Part shown: in pieces, positions 57,323 through 60,937 of the stretch
Layout: each line of letters begins with the position of its first letter
Numbering within the stretch: the stretch's first letter is position 1
NCBI RefSeq assembly: GCF_016313185.1
Contig: NZ_CP066218.1
Location: 3,100,001-3,164,000 of the forward strand
DNA length: 64,000 nucleotides
Direction of reading: 5' to 3'
From: Mycolicibacterium baixiangningiae
GTDB taxonomy: Bacteria > Actinomycetota > Actinomycetes > Mycobacteriales > Mycobacteriaceae
Made by a program: the position numbers and the translations under genes
Notes under the pieces: generated by a model
What the model saw: the letters and a program-made list of their open reading frames with translations, nothing else
What the model was told of the DNA's origin: nothing
Database searches by the model: none

Positions 57323-57871
57323 CTAGGAACTCGTGTCGACGTTCCTGCGCGGGCCGGTGCGTATCCAGACCACCGCGAAGAACACCAACGTCAGCCCCAG
57401 CGGGAGGAGCCCGACGAGCCAGCTCAGCGCCAGCGGGGGTCCTGGCTGTCCGAGCACGTCGACGGCCAGGTCGCCGGTGCCTTCGCCCTGCGGACCGTCG
57501 ATCGTGAACTGCAGCGTCCACGTCCCCGAGGAGTCGAGAGACTCCACGTCAAGGCCCCACACATCGCGGTTGCGGGGATGCCGGGACAGTCGATCCCCGT
57601 CCTCCCGGCCATCGGGAGCGATAGCCGCGATGGTGCCGGACTTGCCTGCGATTCCGCCGTCCGGTTCGAACGTGAAATCCAACGACTGCATGGCGCGCAG
57701 CGGCCACACGGTGAACCCGACCGTCACCGGGTAGGGGCCCACCTGGACGTGCTCGGTGTGCACGACGTAGTCCAGCGGATCGGCGGCCGCGGCCGGTGCC
57801 ACCCCGATCGACAGCGCGGCGACGGCGCACAGCATCGCGACCCTCGCCCGCAACCCCTTGTGGATGGTCAT
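57323..57871 (-). CDS. Exported beta-domain protein with C-terminal membrane anchor (PmoD-like topology)
   Basis: A 182-residue protein: signal peptide 1-29 (A-V-A-A-L-S-I-G-V-A-P-A-A-A before A-D-P-L), then an all-beta extracytoplasmic domain of ~115 residues (Y-V-V-H-T-E-H-V-Q-V-G-P-Y-P-V-T-V-G, S-G-T-W-T-L-Q-F-T-I-D). One C-terminal helix (~146-170) precedes an R-R tail. This order is that of PmoD and CopC/YcnI-like copper proteins; sequence similarity to them is not evident. ATG overlaps the stop of the polytopic gene (atga), last gene of the operon. Confidence 0.75.
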   Translation of the reverse strand: MTIHKGLRARVAMLCAVAALSIGVAPAAAADPLDYVVHTEHVQVGPYPVTVGFTVWPLRAMQSLDFTFEPDGGIAGKSGTIAAIAPDGREDGDRLSRHPRNRDVWGLDVESLDSSGTWTLQFTIDGPQGEGTGDLAVDVLGQPGPPLALSWLVGLLPLGLTLVFFAVVWIRTGPRRNVDTSS

Positions 57872-58980
57872 GCCGTGCCACCGACGGTCGCACTGACGGC
57901 AGGTGTCGCGTTCGCTGCACGCAGTGCCCGGCCGAGTCGCCACGTCGCGCCGCCGAGCACCCCCGCGAGCAGGCCCCCGGCGACGCACGTCAGCAGGATG
58001 CTGCCCGCGTGTCCGCCGCCGTCCTCACCACCCAGGTCGACGCCCCCAGATCCCATTGAGCTGAGCAGCCACGTGATCGCGATCACACCTGCCGCGCCGG
58101 AACCGGCTAGCAGCCAGGCGCTCGCGCCTCTCCACCGCAGCAGGAGCTCGACGACGACGCCGAACACGAAAACGATTGCGGGGATCAGCACCATGTCGAA
58201 GGGAAAGCCCAACTCGACGAAGTCGCGAAGCGCCAAGTGCTGCAGGTCGGCATACCAGCCGACCGCCCAGCTGGCGAACGACCAGGTCGCCAGGTTCAGC
58301 ACCAGTGTGAGAAGGCCGGTGCCGATGGCTCCGCCGCGCGGCACGACTTGAGATCCGACCAGCACGCAGACGAGCGGAATGGCCAGCCAGGTCAGGGTGG
58401 GCCAGTCGATGGTCGCGCCCAGGTTGAGGTCTGCCAGCGCGCCGCTTTGGATCGAGGCGTACTGCCCGAACGCCGCAATCGAGACCATGAATCCCCAACG
58501 GCCCCAGCGATGTTCGCGGGCCGCTGCGAAGACGATCGCGGTGCCGATCATGGTGACACAGATCGACGTCAGCCAACCTTGGTGTGGCGGCGACGCGACG
58601 GTCACGTCGAATCCGTACAGGCCGTGCCACCACTCGTCGTATAACCCGTACAGCAGGAAGGAGGCCGCGGCGATGCCGGCGATCAGATAGCCGATCGGCG
58701 CGGCGAATACGCCGAGCACCTTGAACGCGCGACCGCCGACGGTCGGATCGAGATCCTGGCCATTGCGCTGTGCGGCGGTGGCCCGCAACACCATCACCAA
58801 GCTGGTCAAGCCGGCGATCGCGCCGCCTGAGTAGATAAACAAGTGCGGCAGCGTGAAGAAGCTGTCCGGCCCGACGTCAAGGTGCCAGTCGACGTCCCAG
58901 GTCAACCCCGACAGCGAGATCAGGGTGCCGGCGAGCATGACAAACGCCGGTAACTTGCCGCGCGAATCCGCACTCGTCAT
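57868..58980 (-). CDS. Polytopic membrane protein with PmoC/AmoC-like metal motif
   Basis: A 370-residue protein with about nine to ten helices. Residues 29-50 contain D29-x3-H33-x12-H46, spelled W-D-V-D-W-H-L-D-V-G-P-D-S-F-F-T-L-P-H and followed by L-F-I-Y-S. The spacing equals the copper ligands of methane monooxygenase PmoC (D156, H160, H173 as I recall), and the W-H...D-S/T-F-T...H...Y context is similar too. A second, related block D115-x3-H119-x13-H133 (Y-D-E-W-W-H ... S-P-P-H) suggests an internal repeat. Membrane-embedded copper-centre subunit is inferred. It sits 14 bp after the FixH-like gene. Confidence 0.7.
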   Translation of the reverse strand: MTSADSRGKLPAFVMLAGTLISLSGLTWDVDWHLDVGPDSFFTLPHLFIYSGGAIAGLTSLVMVLRATAAQRNGQDLDPTVGGRAFKVLGVFAAPIGYLIAGIAAASFLLYGLYDEWWHGLYGFDVTVASPPHQGWLTSICVTMIGTAIVFAAAREHRWGRWGFMVSIAAFGQYASIQSGALADLNLGATIDWPTLTWLAIPLVCVLVGSQVVPRGGAIGTGLLTLVLNLATWSFASWAVGWYADLQHLALRDFVELGFPFDMVLIPAIVFVFGVVVELLLRWRGASAWLLAGSGAAGVIAITWLLSSMGSGGVDLGGEDGGGHAGSILLTCVAGGLLAGVLGGATWRLGRALRAANATPAVSATVGGTA

Positions 58981-58994
58981 GGCGGTGTGCCTTT

Positions 58995-59402
58995 CTAGCC
59001 GTTGGTGGTGACGCTCAGAACTGCTTCTTGTACTTGGCCGCTCGCGGCAATGCGGACCGTGATGTCCCATTGCCCGGCCATGGACAGATCGACGTCGGCA
59101 CGGTACCGACCGTCGCCTTGGGCCACGGCAGCCACAGGTGTTGTGGCATGGCCCATTTGGGGCATCACGGGTTCGAAGGTGACTGAGTCCGGTGTGGGTG
59201 GCTGGCCCCCGTTGCCGGTTATCTCGACGGTGGCAGGGCTGATTCCGACCTTCGGCGGCTCGCCGATCAGCTGCACACGGTACGGTCCTGCCGTCACGGT
59301 GGCCGCGCTATCCTCCATCGATTTCGGCCACAGAAACCAGATTCCGGCGCCGACGACGGCGGCGGCGATCGCGGCGATGACAAGAAAGCGCTGGCGACTC
59401 AC
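58995..59402 (-). CDS. FixH/YtkA-like membrane-anchored beta-domain protein
   Basis: A 135-residue protein, GTG start at 59402 overlapping the upstream stop (gtga). One N-terminal anchor helix (F-L-V-I-A-A-I-A-A-A-V-V-G-A-G-I-W-F-L-W) is followed by an Ig-like domain: Y-R-V-Q-L-I-G-E-P, P-A-T-V-E-I-T-G-N-G-G, V-M-P-Q-M-G-H-A-T-T-P, and A-G-Q-W-D-I-T-V-R-I. The M-P-x-M-G-H turn is typical of YtkA/FixH domains, some of which bind copper or help assemble copper oxidases. Confidence 0.78.
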   Translation of the reverse strand: MSRQRFLVIAAIAAAVVGAGIWFLWPKSMEDSAATVTAGPYRVQLIGEPPKVGISPATVEITGNGGQPPTPDSVTFEPVMPQMGHATTPVAAVAQGDGRYRADVDLSMAGQWDITVRIAASGQVQEAVLSVTTNG

Positions 59403-60817
59403 GGTTGGCGGACCTCGACTTCGGTTGGCGCGGTGAGGATGGCGTAGTCGCGTTCGGTCTGCACCCATACCTTGTAGCGGCCAGGCAGTGCGAACGAGTA
59501 GGTGAAATCGATCTCGGGCCCGTACCGGGCAACTGATTCGTCGGGCTGCCCGCCTGCGGCGCCGGGTGCGGGCGGCACCATGGCATGCGCATGCGACCAG
59601 ACCGGTGCTGTCAGTGCGTGTTTGCCGATGTCGGGGCCGTCGGGTAGTGGTCCGACGACCATCATGTGTCCGACCATCCCGAGCCACGGCTGCAGGTCGG
59701 GGGTGTCCCCGAACCTGGCCCGGATGGTGCTCGGGCTGCCCGCCGGCGCGACCGTCGCGGTGATTTCGCCCTGCGAGGGTGGCGCTGCGGTGGGTGGTGC
59801 GGCAGCGGATCGCCCGTCGACCGAGCCACGGAGCAGTTGCACCCCGCCGCCGCGCCTGGCGATCTCGGCCGTCATCGCGTATGTCCCGCGTTCGGTGGTG
59901 GCGAACTTCGCCTCGTACCGTCCCGGCGCGACACGGACAGGATGCACGTGTGACATGGTGCCCGCAGGCGAGACGACGATGAGATGGATCAGCGCGCCGT
60001 GGTGGATCAGCAGGTCGTCGGCGGGTCGGCCGGTGGAGGAGTCGGTGAGGTTCAATCGCAGCGTGGACTGGCCAGCGGACACCGCCATGTTCACCGGCGG
60101 CCGCGAATAATCCACCGGATTAAGCGAATTGGCCCCAATGCGTGCGTAGGGATCACGGATGTTCTCGAGGGTGGGGTCAAGGTCCTGGCCGGGCTGCGGG
60201 GGTGGCGGGGAGTACGCCGACAGCATCGCGCCGGTGACAGCCACCGTCAGCGCGACGATCATGCCGGTCGCCGGGACTAGGGCCATCCAGCTGCGGCGCG
60301 CGCGCAACGCGGCTGCCAGTGAGACAATCAGCAGCGCGCCCGCGGAGAAGAAGCCGTAGTCACTGGCTTTCTTCCACGGCGGAATCACCTGCGCGGGAAC
60401 CAGAAACGGGATCCGTGCCGCGGTGTGGCCGTCGTCGACGATCAGTTCCCACGGTCCGGCCCTGTCGACGTTCAGTGTCGCCGAATAGATGCCGGGCGGG
60501 CCGAGCTTCACCTGCTCGCTGCTGGTAGTGGCTCCCGGTGCCGACGCGGTGAGTTGCAGTGCGCCTGGAGCGTCGCCGTGATGTGTGGCGACGTCGACGT
60601 GCAGAGGCCCGAGGACCGGCCCGACTCGCCGGATCGTGACCGTCAATTCCCGACCGCCGAGCGACTGGGCGACGTGCACGTCTGCATCCGATCCGATCCC
60701 ATCGGCCCGCGCCGCAGGTACGCCAACCAAGGTCATGACCATCAGCATGCCGCTCAAGAATGCCAGCGTCTTGGGGGATAACTTCCCACTATGTCGCGCA
60801 GGGGTTGCGCAGCTCAT
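59399..60817 (-). CDS. Exported beta / 2-TM / beta protein (PmoB-like topology), first gene of copper-type operon
   Basis: A 472-residue protein from ATG 60817: signal peptide ending A-A-R-A (~38), a beta domain to ~145 with H73, H79, H80, two helices (~155-172, 178-200), then two more beta segments. His clusters are L-I-H-H-G-A-L-I-H (272-278), M-S-H-V-H-P (H290, H292), V-G-H-M-M (H384) and W-S-H-A-H (H409, H411), the last in a YtkA-like domain. Beta domain, helix pair, beta domain is the plan of PmoB/AmoB; the copper role is inferred. A GTG start at 60937 would add a second hydrophobic segment encoded by a tandem duplication; the choice is uncertain. Confidence 0.7.
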   Translation of the reverse strand: MSCATPARHSGKLSPKTLAFLSGMLMVMTLVGVPAARADGIGSDADVHVAQSLGGRELTVTIRRVGPVLGPLHVDVATHHGDAPGALQLTASAPGATTSSEQVKLGPPGIYSATLNVDRAGPWELIVDDGHTAARIPFLVPAQVIPPWKKASDYGFFSAGALLIVSLAAALRARRSWMALVPATGMIVALTVAVTGAMLSAYSPPPPQPGQDLDPTLENIRDPYARIGANSLNPVDYSRPPVNMAVSAGQSTLRLNLTDSSTGRPADDLLIHHGALIHLIVVSPAGTMSHVHPVRVAPGRYEAKFATTERGTYAMTAEIARRGGGVQLLRGSVDGRSAAAPPTAAPPSQGEITATVAPAGSPSTIRARFGDTPDLQPWLGMVGHMMVVGPLPDGPDIGKHALTAPVWSHAHAMVPPAPGAAGGQPDESVARYGPEIDFTYSFALPGRYKVWVQTERDYAILTAPTEVEVRQP

Positions 60818-60930
60818 CACGCCGGCCAAGGTCACGACCACCAGCATCCCGCTCAAAAATGTGAGTGTCGCCGGGGTTATCCCACCGCTTTGGCGGGGGA
60901 TAACCCCCACTTTGGTCGCGCATCGCCGGT
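60720..60930. repeat. Imperfect ~99-bp tandem duplication at the 5' end of the operon
   Basis: Two adjacent copies (about 60720-60818 and 60819-60930) share acgccnnccaaggtcaygacc at their starts. They share gggggataac and gtcgcgca words at their ends. The second copy carries ~23 extra bases. On the minus strand both encode C-A-T ... F-L-S-G-M-L-x-V-x-T-L-x-G-V, that is, the signal-peptide core twice. Confidence 0.65.
60873..60907. promoter_or_regulatory. 11-bp perfect inverted repeat upstream of the copper-type operon
   Basis: ggggttatccc (60873-60883) and gggataacccc (60897-60907) are exact complements around 13 bases, some 56-90 bp upstream of the ATG at 60817. A TAAGAT -10-like box lies further up (about 60959-60964). 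It could be an operator (metal-responsive CsoR-type sites are GC-rich dyads) or an attenuator hairpin. Confidence 0.45.
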
Positions 60931-60937
60931 CCACCAA

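What the first reader, a model, noticed from the sequence alone, without database searches (positions are those of the whole stretch)
57323..60937. Candidate divergent copper membrane monooxygenase-like operon
Four tightly coupled minus-strand genes (gtga overlap, 14-bp gap, atga overlap) encode: a large exported beta / two-helix / beta protein with several His clusters; a FixH/YtkA-like anchored protein; a polytopic protein with D29-x3-H33-x12-H46 in the context W-D-V-D-W-H-L-D-V-G-P-D-S-F-F-T-L-P-H; and an exported beta protein with a C-terminal anchor. The motif spacing and surroundings match the copper-ligand segment of PmoC/AmoC, and the two beta proteins have the topologies of PmoB and PmoD. 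No PmoA-like gene is seen and no clear full-length homology is visible, so if real this is a remote or new branch, or a copper-handling complex.
Basis: partly seen in the sequence, partly recalled or inferred. Interest (0 to 1): 0.92.

Follow-up and report, generated by a model that had tools for sequence, protein, structure and literature searches.

The report
Actinobacterial relatives of methane-monooxygenase PmoC
A four-gene operon in a mycobacterium encodes a membrane protein that shares its core and both copper-binding motifs with the metal-carrying subunit of methane and ammonia monooxygenases but lacks the usual partner subunits, pointing to an apparently undescribed branch of that protein family whose function is not yet known.

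Summary
Four coupled minus-strand genes encode an exported beta/2-TM/beta-beta protein, a YtkA/FixH protein, a 10-helix membrane protein (P0003) and an anchored beta protein.

All six are invariant in 104 of 104 aligned sequences. A core profile from 14 superfamily members, P0003 included, matches 14 of 177,635 PDB sequences at E<=10. All 14 are AmoC or PmoC (best E 1e-4). Shuffled, CtaG, COX3 and HmoA controls fail. P0003's own family alone is too far off for direct profile hits; the link runs through relatives.

PmoB is not demonstrated, and no PmoA gene is in the operon. This is a separate branch of the subunit-C superfamily, not a CuMMO as defined. In a sister branch fused to a FixH/YtkA-like domain, the two motifs are visibly a tandem duplication. 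Another branch is common in mycobacteria (40 of 60).

Function is unproven: a PmoC-type copper redox enzyme (slightly favoured) or a copper-delivery complex.

The parts
59399..60937 (-). P0001: exported beta / two-TM / beta-beta protein with invariant His clusters (H318, H330, H332, H424, H449, H451; numbering of the 512-aa reading); true start probably downstream of the TTG
   Evidence: weak YtkA match in 51 of 60 sequences scanned
58995..59402 (-). P0002: membrane-anchored YtkA/FixH domain protein with conserved MPxMGHA
   Evidence: PF13115 E 5e-14, above cut-off; alignment of 9 sequences (one has MPLMGHA, one MPEMGHA)
57868..58980 (-). P0003: 10-helix membrane protein; first four helices form the PmoC/AmoC-like core
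58843..58896 (-). CuC-like motif of P0003, D29-x3-H33-x12-H46
   Evidence: invariant in 104 of 104; CuC ligands of pMMO from passages of PMC12576850
58582..58638 (-). CuD-like motif of P0003, D115-x3-H119-x13-H133 (Asp where PmoC has Asn227)
   Evidence: CuD ligands from passages of PMC12576850
57323..57871 (-). P0004: exported beta protein with C-terminal anchor; no Pfam family; conserved VVHTE and RHPR; distantly like P0002
   Evidence: P0002-P0004 profile score 28.6, 0 of 50 shuffles reach it
60875..60905 (.). inverted repeat GGTTATCCC-N-GGGATAACC at the 5' end of the operon; candidate operator or hairpin
   Evidence: similar repeats seen by eye in 4 of 6 orthologue upstream regions; only exact match of the pattern in the genome

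Best explanation
SHOWN: P0003 belongs to an apparently undescribed actinobacterial branch of the superfamily that contains PmoC/AmoC. Its first four helices form a helical hairpin pair with two ligand sets, D29/H33/H46 and D115/H119/H133, with the spacing of the CuC and CuD ligands of PmoC. It is encoded in a conserved operon with three exported or anchored proteins, one of which is a YtkA/FixH protein and the other two of which carry distantly similar stretches. INFERRED: both ligand sets face the extracytoplasmic side and bind copper as a two-site centre. P0002 (MPxMGH) and the His clusters of P0001 collect copper and load it into that centre. P0001 and P0004 form the outer part of the complex. 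The loaded centre then does copper/O2 redox chemistry on a small or membrane substrate in the manner of PmoC, without PmoA. The redox step is the least certain; copper delivery is the close rival.
Confidence: 0.5

Rival explanations
1. Copper acquisition or delivery complex: the PmoC-like core is a membrane copper relay or insertion factor that passes copper from the YtkA/FixH and His-rich exported domains to cytochrome oxidase or another cuproenzyme. It descends from the same ancestor as PmoC but is not an oxygenase.
For: P0002 is YtkA/FixH, and P0001 and P0004 have stretches like it; YtkA (CtaK) is a CuA-centre assembly factor in B. subtilis (PMC9145763, passages). A related domain is fused to the core in P0125. 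The paralogue P0126 on the M. vanbaalenii JOB5 plasmid lies with CopC, haem-copper oxidase subunit III, TlpA, a cytochrome c oxidase assembly protein and DUF305. P0126 is in 40 of 60 genus genomes at E<1e-200, common for a specialised hydrocarbon oxidase. No PmoA in the operon. Two listed homologues of P0003 are named haem/copper-type oxidase subunit 4 by their source.
Against: The core around the ligands is strongly conserved (48 invariant columns in 104 sequences, most in the first 160 residues), as in an active site. Asp/His sets would be unusual for Cu(I) transport (general knowledge). No cuproenzyme or copper regulator was recognised beside the window operon (by eye). In hmo loci the shared cassette accompanies an enzyme, so P0126 may be a client rather than a carrier.
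Confidence: 0.38
2. A full copper membrane monooxygenase in the strict sense, with P0001 as PmoB and the C-terminal helices of P0003 standing in for PmoA.
Against: hhalign of P0003, P0125, merged or core profiles with HmoA is at noise (12.8-17.1). Whole P0001 with HmoB is 25.1 and is reached by 3 of 50 shuffles. P0001 domains look Ig/FnIII-like. No PF02461 or PF04744 match in the genome (with uninformative controls).
Confidence: 0.06
3. Convergence or chance: an unrelated membrane family in which D/H motifs happen to match PmoC spacing.
For: P0003 by itself has no significant AmoC match, and Foldseek finds nothing.
Against: 14 of 14 PDB hits of the core profile are AmoC/PmoC; 0 of 200 shuffles reach the score; both motif pairs align in one pass in the right order.
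Confidence: 0.03

Closest known systems
PmoC / AmoC / HmoC (PF04896, TIGR03078), subunit C of copper membrane monooxygenases
   Same: Both ligand sets with the same spacing; WH after the first Asp, Asp six residues after the first His, PH or SH before the next helix; specific profile similarity of the core.
   Different: Core is at the N-terminus (first ligand residue 29; residue 156 in PmoC); Asp instead of Asn at the CuD site; six further helices after the core; no family model matched; no PmoA gene partner.
YtkA/CtaK and FixH families (PF13115, PF05751)
   Same: P0002 is a member over the Pfam cut-off, with a conserved MPxMGH stretch; parts of P0001, P0004 and of the P0125 C-terminus are related to it.
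   Different: Here tied by operon and fusion to a PmoC-like membrane core.
Caa3_CtaG (PF09678) and COX3 (PF00510)
   Different: No profile similarity above noise.
Hydrocarbon monooxygenase hmoCAB of M. chubuense NBB4 and M. dioxanotrophicus
   Same: HmoC is alignable with P0125 (31.5% over 111 residues in one direction of a 14-sequence BLAST; only 22 residues in the other); a cupredoxin-like + 450-aa cassette lies near hmo and beside P0126.
   Different: True three-subunit CuMMO; methanol dehydrogenase and other catabolic genes nearby.

Membership tests
PmoC/AmoC superfamily (core domain) | CuC ligand set D-x3-H-x12-H | tested here: met
   D29/H33/H46, invariant in 104 of 104; reference ligands (passages)
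PmoC/AmoC superfamily (core domain) | CuD ligand set N-x3-H-x13-H | tested here: met
   D115/H119/H133, same spacing, with Asp for Asn
PmoC/AmoC superfamily (core domain) | specific profile similarity | tested here: met
   for the superfamily core; joins P0003 to P0125; the P0003 family alone has no AmoC among the families shown and no PDB AmoC hit
PmoC/AmoC family sensu Pfam/NCBIfam (PF04896, TIGR03078) | score above curated cut-off | tested here: not met
   P0003 no match; P0125 18 bits against 26.7
PmoC/AmoC family sensu stricto | same fold in a solved-structure comparison | tested here: inconclusive
Copper membrane monooxygenase complex | PmoA/AmoA subunit gene | tested here: inconclusive
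   none among the four operon proteins; PF02461 no match in own genome, control uninformative; profiles vs HmoA at noise
Copper membrane monooxygenase complex | PmoB/AmoB homologue | tested here: inconclusive
   whole P0001 family vs six HmoB 25.1, reached by 3 of 50 shuffles; its middle domain 27.9 on 31 columns, 0 of 50; PF04744 no match in own genome, control uninformative
Copper membrane monooxygenase complex | oxidation of ammonia, alkane or alkene | not testable with these tools
   needs expression and assay
PmoD | similarity of P0004 to PmoD | not tested
   no PmoD sequences were fetched; P0004 has no Pfam match
YtkA/FixH (P0002) | score above Pfam cut-off | tested here: met
   YtkA 53.1 vs 25.9; FixH 26.8 vs 23
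Caa3_CtaG | profile similarity of P0003 or its superfamily | tested here: not met
   16.3-22.4, in the range of the shuffled-PmoC nulls, maximum 25.8
COX3 | profile similarity | tested here: not met
   12.9-19.8
CopD/YcnJ copper importers | profile similarity | not tested
   only the negative Pfam scan of P0003

The most novel reading that the evidence does not exclude
The PmoC-type metal core is an ancient, independently used catalytic module that arose by tandem duplication of a D-x3-H-x5-D-x(6,7)-H helical hairpin. It still works in actinobacteria, including most mycobacteria sampled, as a copper oxidoreductase without PmoA or PmoB. CuMMOs are then one late specialisation of this module, and CuC and CuD are the two halves of the duplication.
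Probability: 0.33. Interest if true: 0.93.

Novelty: new variant of a known kind. Interest (0 to 1): 0.8.

Why it matters
The location and nature of the pMMO active site, and where CuMMOs came from, are long-standing questions. In eight capped search listings of an open-access library I saw no paper on relatives of PmoC outside CuMMOs. A PmoC-like core without PmoA in mycobacteria, where HMO mutagenesis has been done (cited in PMC6572826; the M. smegmatis host is recalled), gives a small system in which both metal sites can be tested apart. The clear internal duplication in the P0125 branch offers an origin for the CuC/CuD pair. If the complex is copper delivery instead, it reveals a new copper route whose paralogue is present in many mycobacteria.

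Tried and rejected

PmoB: whole P0001 family vs HmoB does not beat its null (3 of 50 shuffles reach 25.1). Its middle domain does on 31 columns (27.9, 0 of 50). P0002 vs HmoB does not (24.9, 1 of 50). The merged profile A8 also scores 30.9 with HmoB (0 of 50), where a helix followed by AHDPGQG of the P0125 type is laid on the HmoB signal peptide and AHGE. I leave these as open hints.

Internal repeat: strong in the P0125 family (E 2.7e-10, score 51.0, maximum of 60 shuffles 24.3), not above the null maximum in the P0003 family (20.8 vs 21.5), absent in PmoC (12.9 vs 18.7). So the duplication is shown only in the P0125 branch. In the same of 2753 ORFs matched the double-motif pattern: 51 superfamily or PmoC, 9 others; the loci had been fetched for these families, so this is no control.

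The merged full-length profile A8 did worse in PDB (a NADH:ferredoxin subunit first at E 0.32, AmoC at 1.2-1.7) than the trimmed core A9. A9 is 14 of the 28 segments, chosen by hand and cut around the motif, so its six ligand columns are fixed partly by construction; the PDB search itself was blind to that. In one search AmoC is the family most often matched by A9 members (3 of 14, best E 1.2e-4), but P0003's own best match there is TctB at E 0.0016 (19.1 bits, cut-off 29.1). I regard that as noise.

A fenitrothion-hydrolase idea for the 450-aa protein came from memory and found no support. The inverted repeat has one exact match in the genome, so it leads to no regulon. In the orthologue alignment it is seen by eye in L015, L016, L018 and L019, is degenerate in L014 and out of register in L013.

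Rows left out: of 289 homologues of P0003, 120 were listed and 103 aligned with it (A2). The 17 others were left out by hand, mostly near-duplicates and a few fragments or irregular rows, not by motif. A5 is P0125 plus 29 of 120 listed homologues (615 found); A7 is P0001 plus 59 of 120 (653 found). P0002 and P0004 comparisons rest on 9 sequences each. The sixth hmo genome (G146) lies on a 3.5-kb contig and could not be read for the cassette.
Full report
Setting. The window is bases 3,100,001-3,164,000 of a 6.18-Mb single-contig genome. The closest named relatives of P0003 are mycobacterial (Mycobacterium/Mycolicibacterium). Neighbouring ORFs look unrelated by eye (PTS-type genes, short-chain dehydrogenase-like ORFs); they were not classified by a tool.

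Observation. All described gene junctions and the D29-x3-H33-x12-H46 motif are present. Homologue searches found 289 relatives of P0003 and 653 of P0001 at E<=0.001. Among the 120 listed for each, the named ones are from Mycobacterium/Mycolicibacterium, Amycolatopsis, Kibdelosporangium, Actinokineospora and similar genera, mostly called hypothetical or secreted protein; two P0003 relatives are called haem/copper-type oxidase subunit 4. Among 100 related genomes, 5 (its own included) have a match at E<1e-50.

A second motif. In an alignment of 104 sequences the invariant columns include D29, H33, D39, H46 and also D115, H119, D125, H133. In M. capsulatus pMMO, CuC is bound by D156, H160, H173 and CuD by N227, H231, H245 of PmoC (PMC12576850, passages). 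The spacings x3/x12 and x3/x13 are the same, in the same order. A mycobacterial HmoC reads DASWHQIVIRDTAFTPSH and NEFGHSFFQPEELFAAPLH; AmoC from viral contigs reads DASWHQVIIRDTSFTPSH and NEWGHAFWFMEELFSAPLH. P0003 reads DVDWHLDVGPDSFFTLPH and DEWWHGLYGFDVTVASPPH.

Homology tests. P0003 alone has no Pfam or NCBIfam match, only chance hits in PDB, and its family profile finds no AmoC there. Single-sequence search found weak relatives in other mycobacteria, which define two further families: P0125 (485 aa) and P0126 (631 aa). The P0003 and P0125 profiles join at E 4.5e-13. P0125 matches PF04896 at E 0.002. Of 30 family members 16 match AmoC at E<=1, more than any other family. In NCBIfam, P0125 and P0274 match only PmoC/AmoC models, and P0308, P0270 and P0126 match nothing. 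The P0125-family profile put AmoC in the first three places of the PDB (E 0.03-0.15). Profile comparison with 8 HmoC/AmoC sequences gave E 7.5e-4 for P0125 (first motif only), 0.012 for P0003 and 6.6e-5 for a merged profile, the last two with both motifs in register. In 100 block-shuffled controls each, none reached the real score (43.1 vs 22.7; 36.0 vs 24.3; 26.5 vs 24.8). CtaG, COX3 and HmoA gave 21.2, 19.8 and 13.2 with the merged profile; HmoB gave 30.9 in a short stretch outside the core, which beats its own null. A 28-sequence core gave E 1e-5, score 43.3, against a maximum of 25.8 in 200 shuffles and 13.7-17.1 for the four control families. A 14-sequence core profile searched against 177,635 PDB sequences returned 14 hits at E<=10, all of them AmoC or PmoC; these are the same 14 distinct sequences that a true PmoC profile finds.

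Partners. P0002 is YtkA/FixH. P0001 is modelled (pLDDT 75.1) as beta / two helices / two beta domains; 51 of 60 sequences match YtkA weakly; fold matches are generic Ig/FnIII. P0002 resembles the middle domain of P0001 (28.1, 0 of 50 shuffles) and P0004 (28.6, 0 of 50), so all three exported proteins may be built from YtkA-like domains. P0001 has the domain order of PmoB but homology is not established. The C-terminal domain of P0125 is related to P0002 (27.7 against a maximum of 18.2 in 60 shuffles), so the core and the YtkA-type domain are linked by operon in one family and by fusion in another.

The wider superfamily. A P0003-family profile matched 19 of 346 genomes across the phylum at E<=1e-3, most of them weakly. 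Eight loci fetched from 6 of these genomes hold an ORF with the double motif, each with Asp at the CuD position. P0126 relatives at E<1e-200 occur in 40 of 60 genus genomes, including this one at 5,624,056-5,625,879. Beside P0126 lie a cupredoxin-like lipoprotein (weak Pfam match; lipoprotein by eye) and a 450-aa membrane protein in 3 of 3 chromosomal loci read. True AmoC-family genes themselves occur in 6 of 297 genus genomes searched and were not found in this genome. On the JOB5 plasmid P0126 lies with CopC, oxidase subunit III, TlpA, an oxidase assembly protein and DUF305, the pair about 8 kb away. On a M. gallinarum plasmid the pair lies among similar genes, with no P0126 detected in the stretch read.

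Duplication. The two halves of the P0125 core align to each other at E 2.7e-10 (score 51.0, maximum of 60 shuffles 24.3). The P0003 halves (20.8 vs 21.5) and the PmoC halves (12.9 vs 18.7) do not exceed their nulls. The simplest account is an ancestral tandem hairpin duplication, still visible in P0125 and eroded in PmoC, where the second Asp is Asn. That is inference.

Mechanism. Shown: superfamily membership, conserved ligand sets, conserved operon, YtkA/FixH partner. Inferred: copper binding, outer-face location, loading by P0002/P0001, and redox activity. PMC6572826 (passages) states that mutating the subunit-C ligands in HMO abrogates activity and that pMMO activity tracks copper in PmoC, which makes a catalytic role for the same kind of centre here plausible. 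The YtkA link (PMC9145763, passages) and the JOB5 cluster make delivery nearly as plausible. I put about 0.5 and 0.38 on these.

Prior description. Eight literature searches, seen as capped listings of titles and abstract beginnings, showed no paper on PmoC-like proteins outside CuMMOs. PMC6215863, PMC12533140 and PMC8239418 were looked at by passages only. Most subscription papers and all preprints are not covered.

On re-reading the calls I added null tests for the HmoB and YtkA comparisons; they moved the PmoB row from not met to inconclusive.

Noticed in passing
window genome G000:C1:5624056-5625879 (L051:9045-12818): A paralogue (P0126 type) with the same double motif, followed by a cupredoxin-like lipoprotein and a 450-aa membrane protein; relatives at E<1e-200 in 40 of 60 genus genomes.
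   Followed up: partly
L108:10724-12519, L109:10077-11980, L116:16262-18012: The cupredoxin-like + 450-aa membrane protein pair lies near hmoCAB in 3 of 5 hmo loci read; it may be a copper-loading pair for PmoC-type sites.
   Followed up: partly
L110:16002-24001 (M. vanbaalenii JOB5 plasmid NZ_CP126903.1): P0126 gene inside a copper/oxidase cluster: CopC, oxidase subunit III, TlpA, oxidase assembly protein, DUF305.
   Followed up: no
window 60875-60905: Inverted repeat GGTTATCCC-N-GGGATAACC, one exact match in the genome, similar repeats by eye upstream of 4 of 6 orthologues.
   Followed up: partly
window about 60740-60910: The leader coding region of P0001 looks internally duplicated (two copies of ...LxFLSGMLxVxTLxGV...), which makes the true start uncertain.
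   Followed up: no
P0125 residues 331-335: After a membrane helix the P0125 family has an invariant AHDPG start to its outer domain (30 of 30), which a profile comparison lays on the AHGE start of mature HmoB (score 30.9, 0 of 50 shuffles); whether this is more than a signal-peptide likeness is open.
   Followed up: partly
L107:12778-13506: A further ORF with WHEVFGIEVGVDALLSPTH, apparently another superfamily variant, on the same contig as a P0126-type gene.
   Followed up: no
L052:7508-16225: In this mycobacterium the P0126 cassette appears to lie between bioB-like and bioD/F/A-like genes (gene names from reading the sequence, no call).
   Followed up: no
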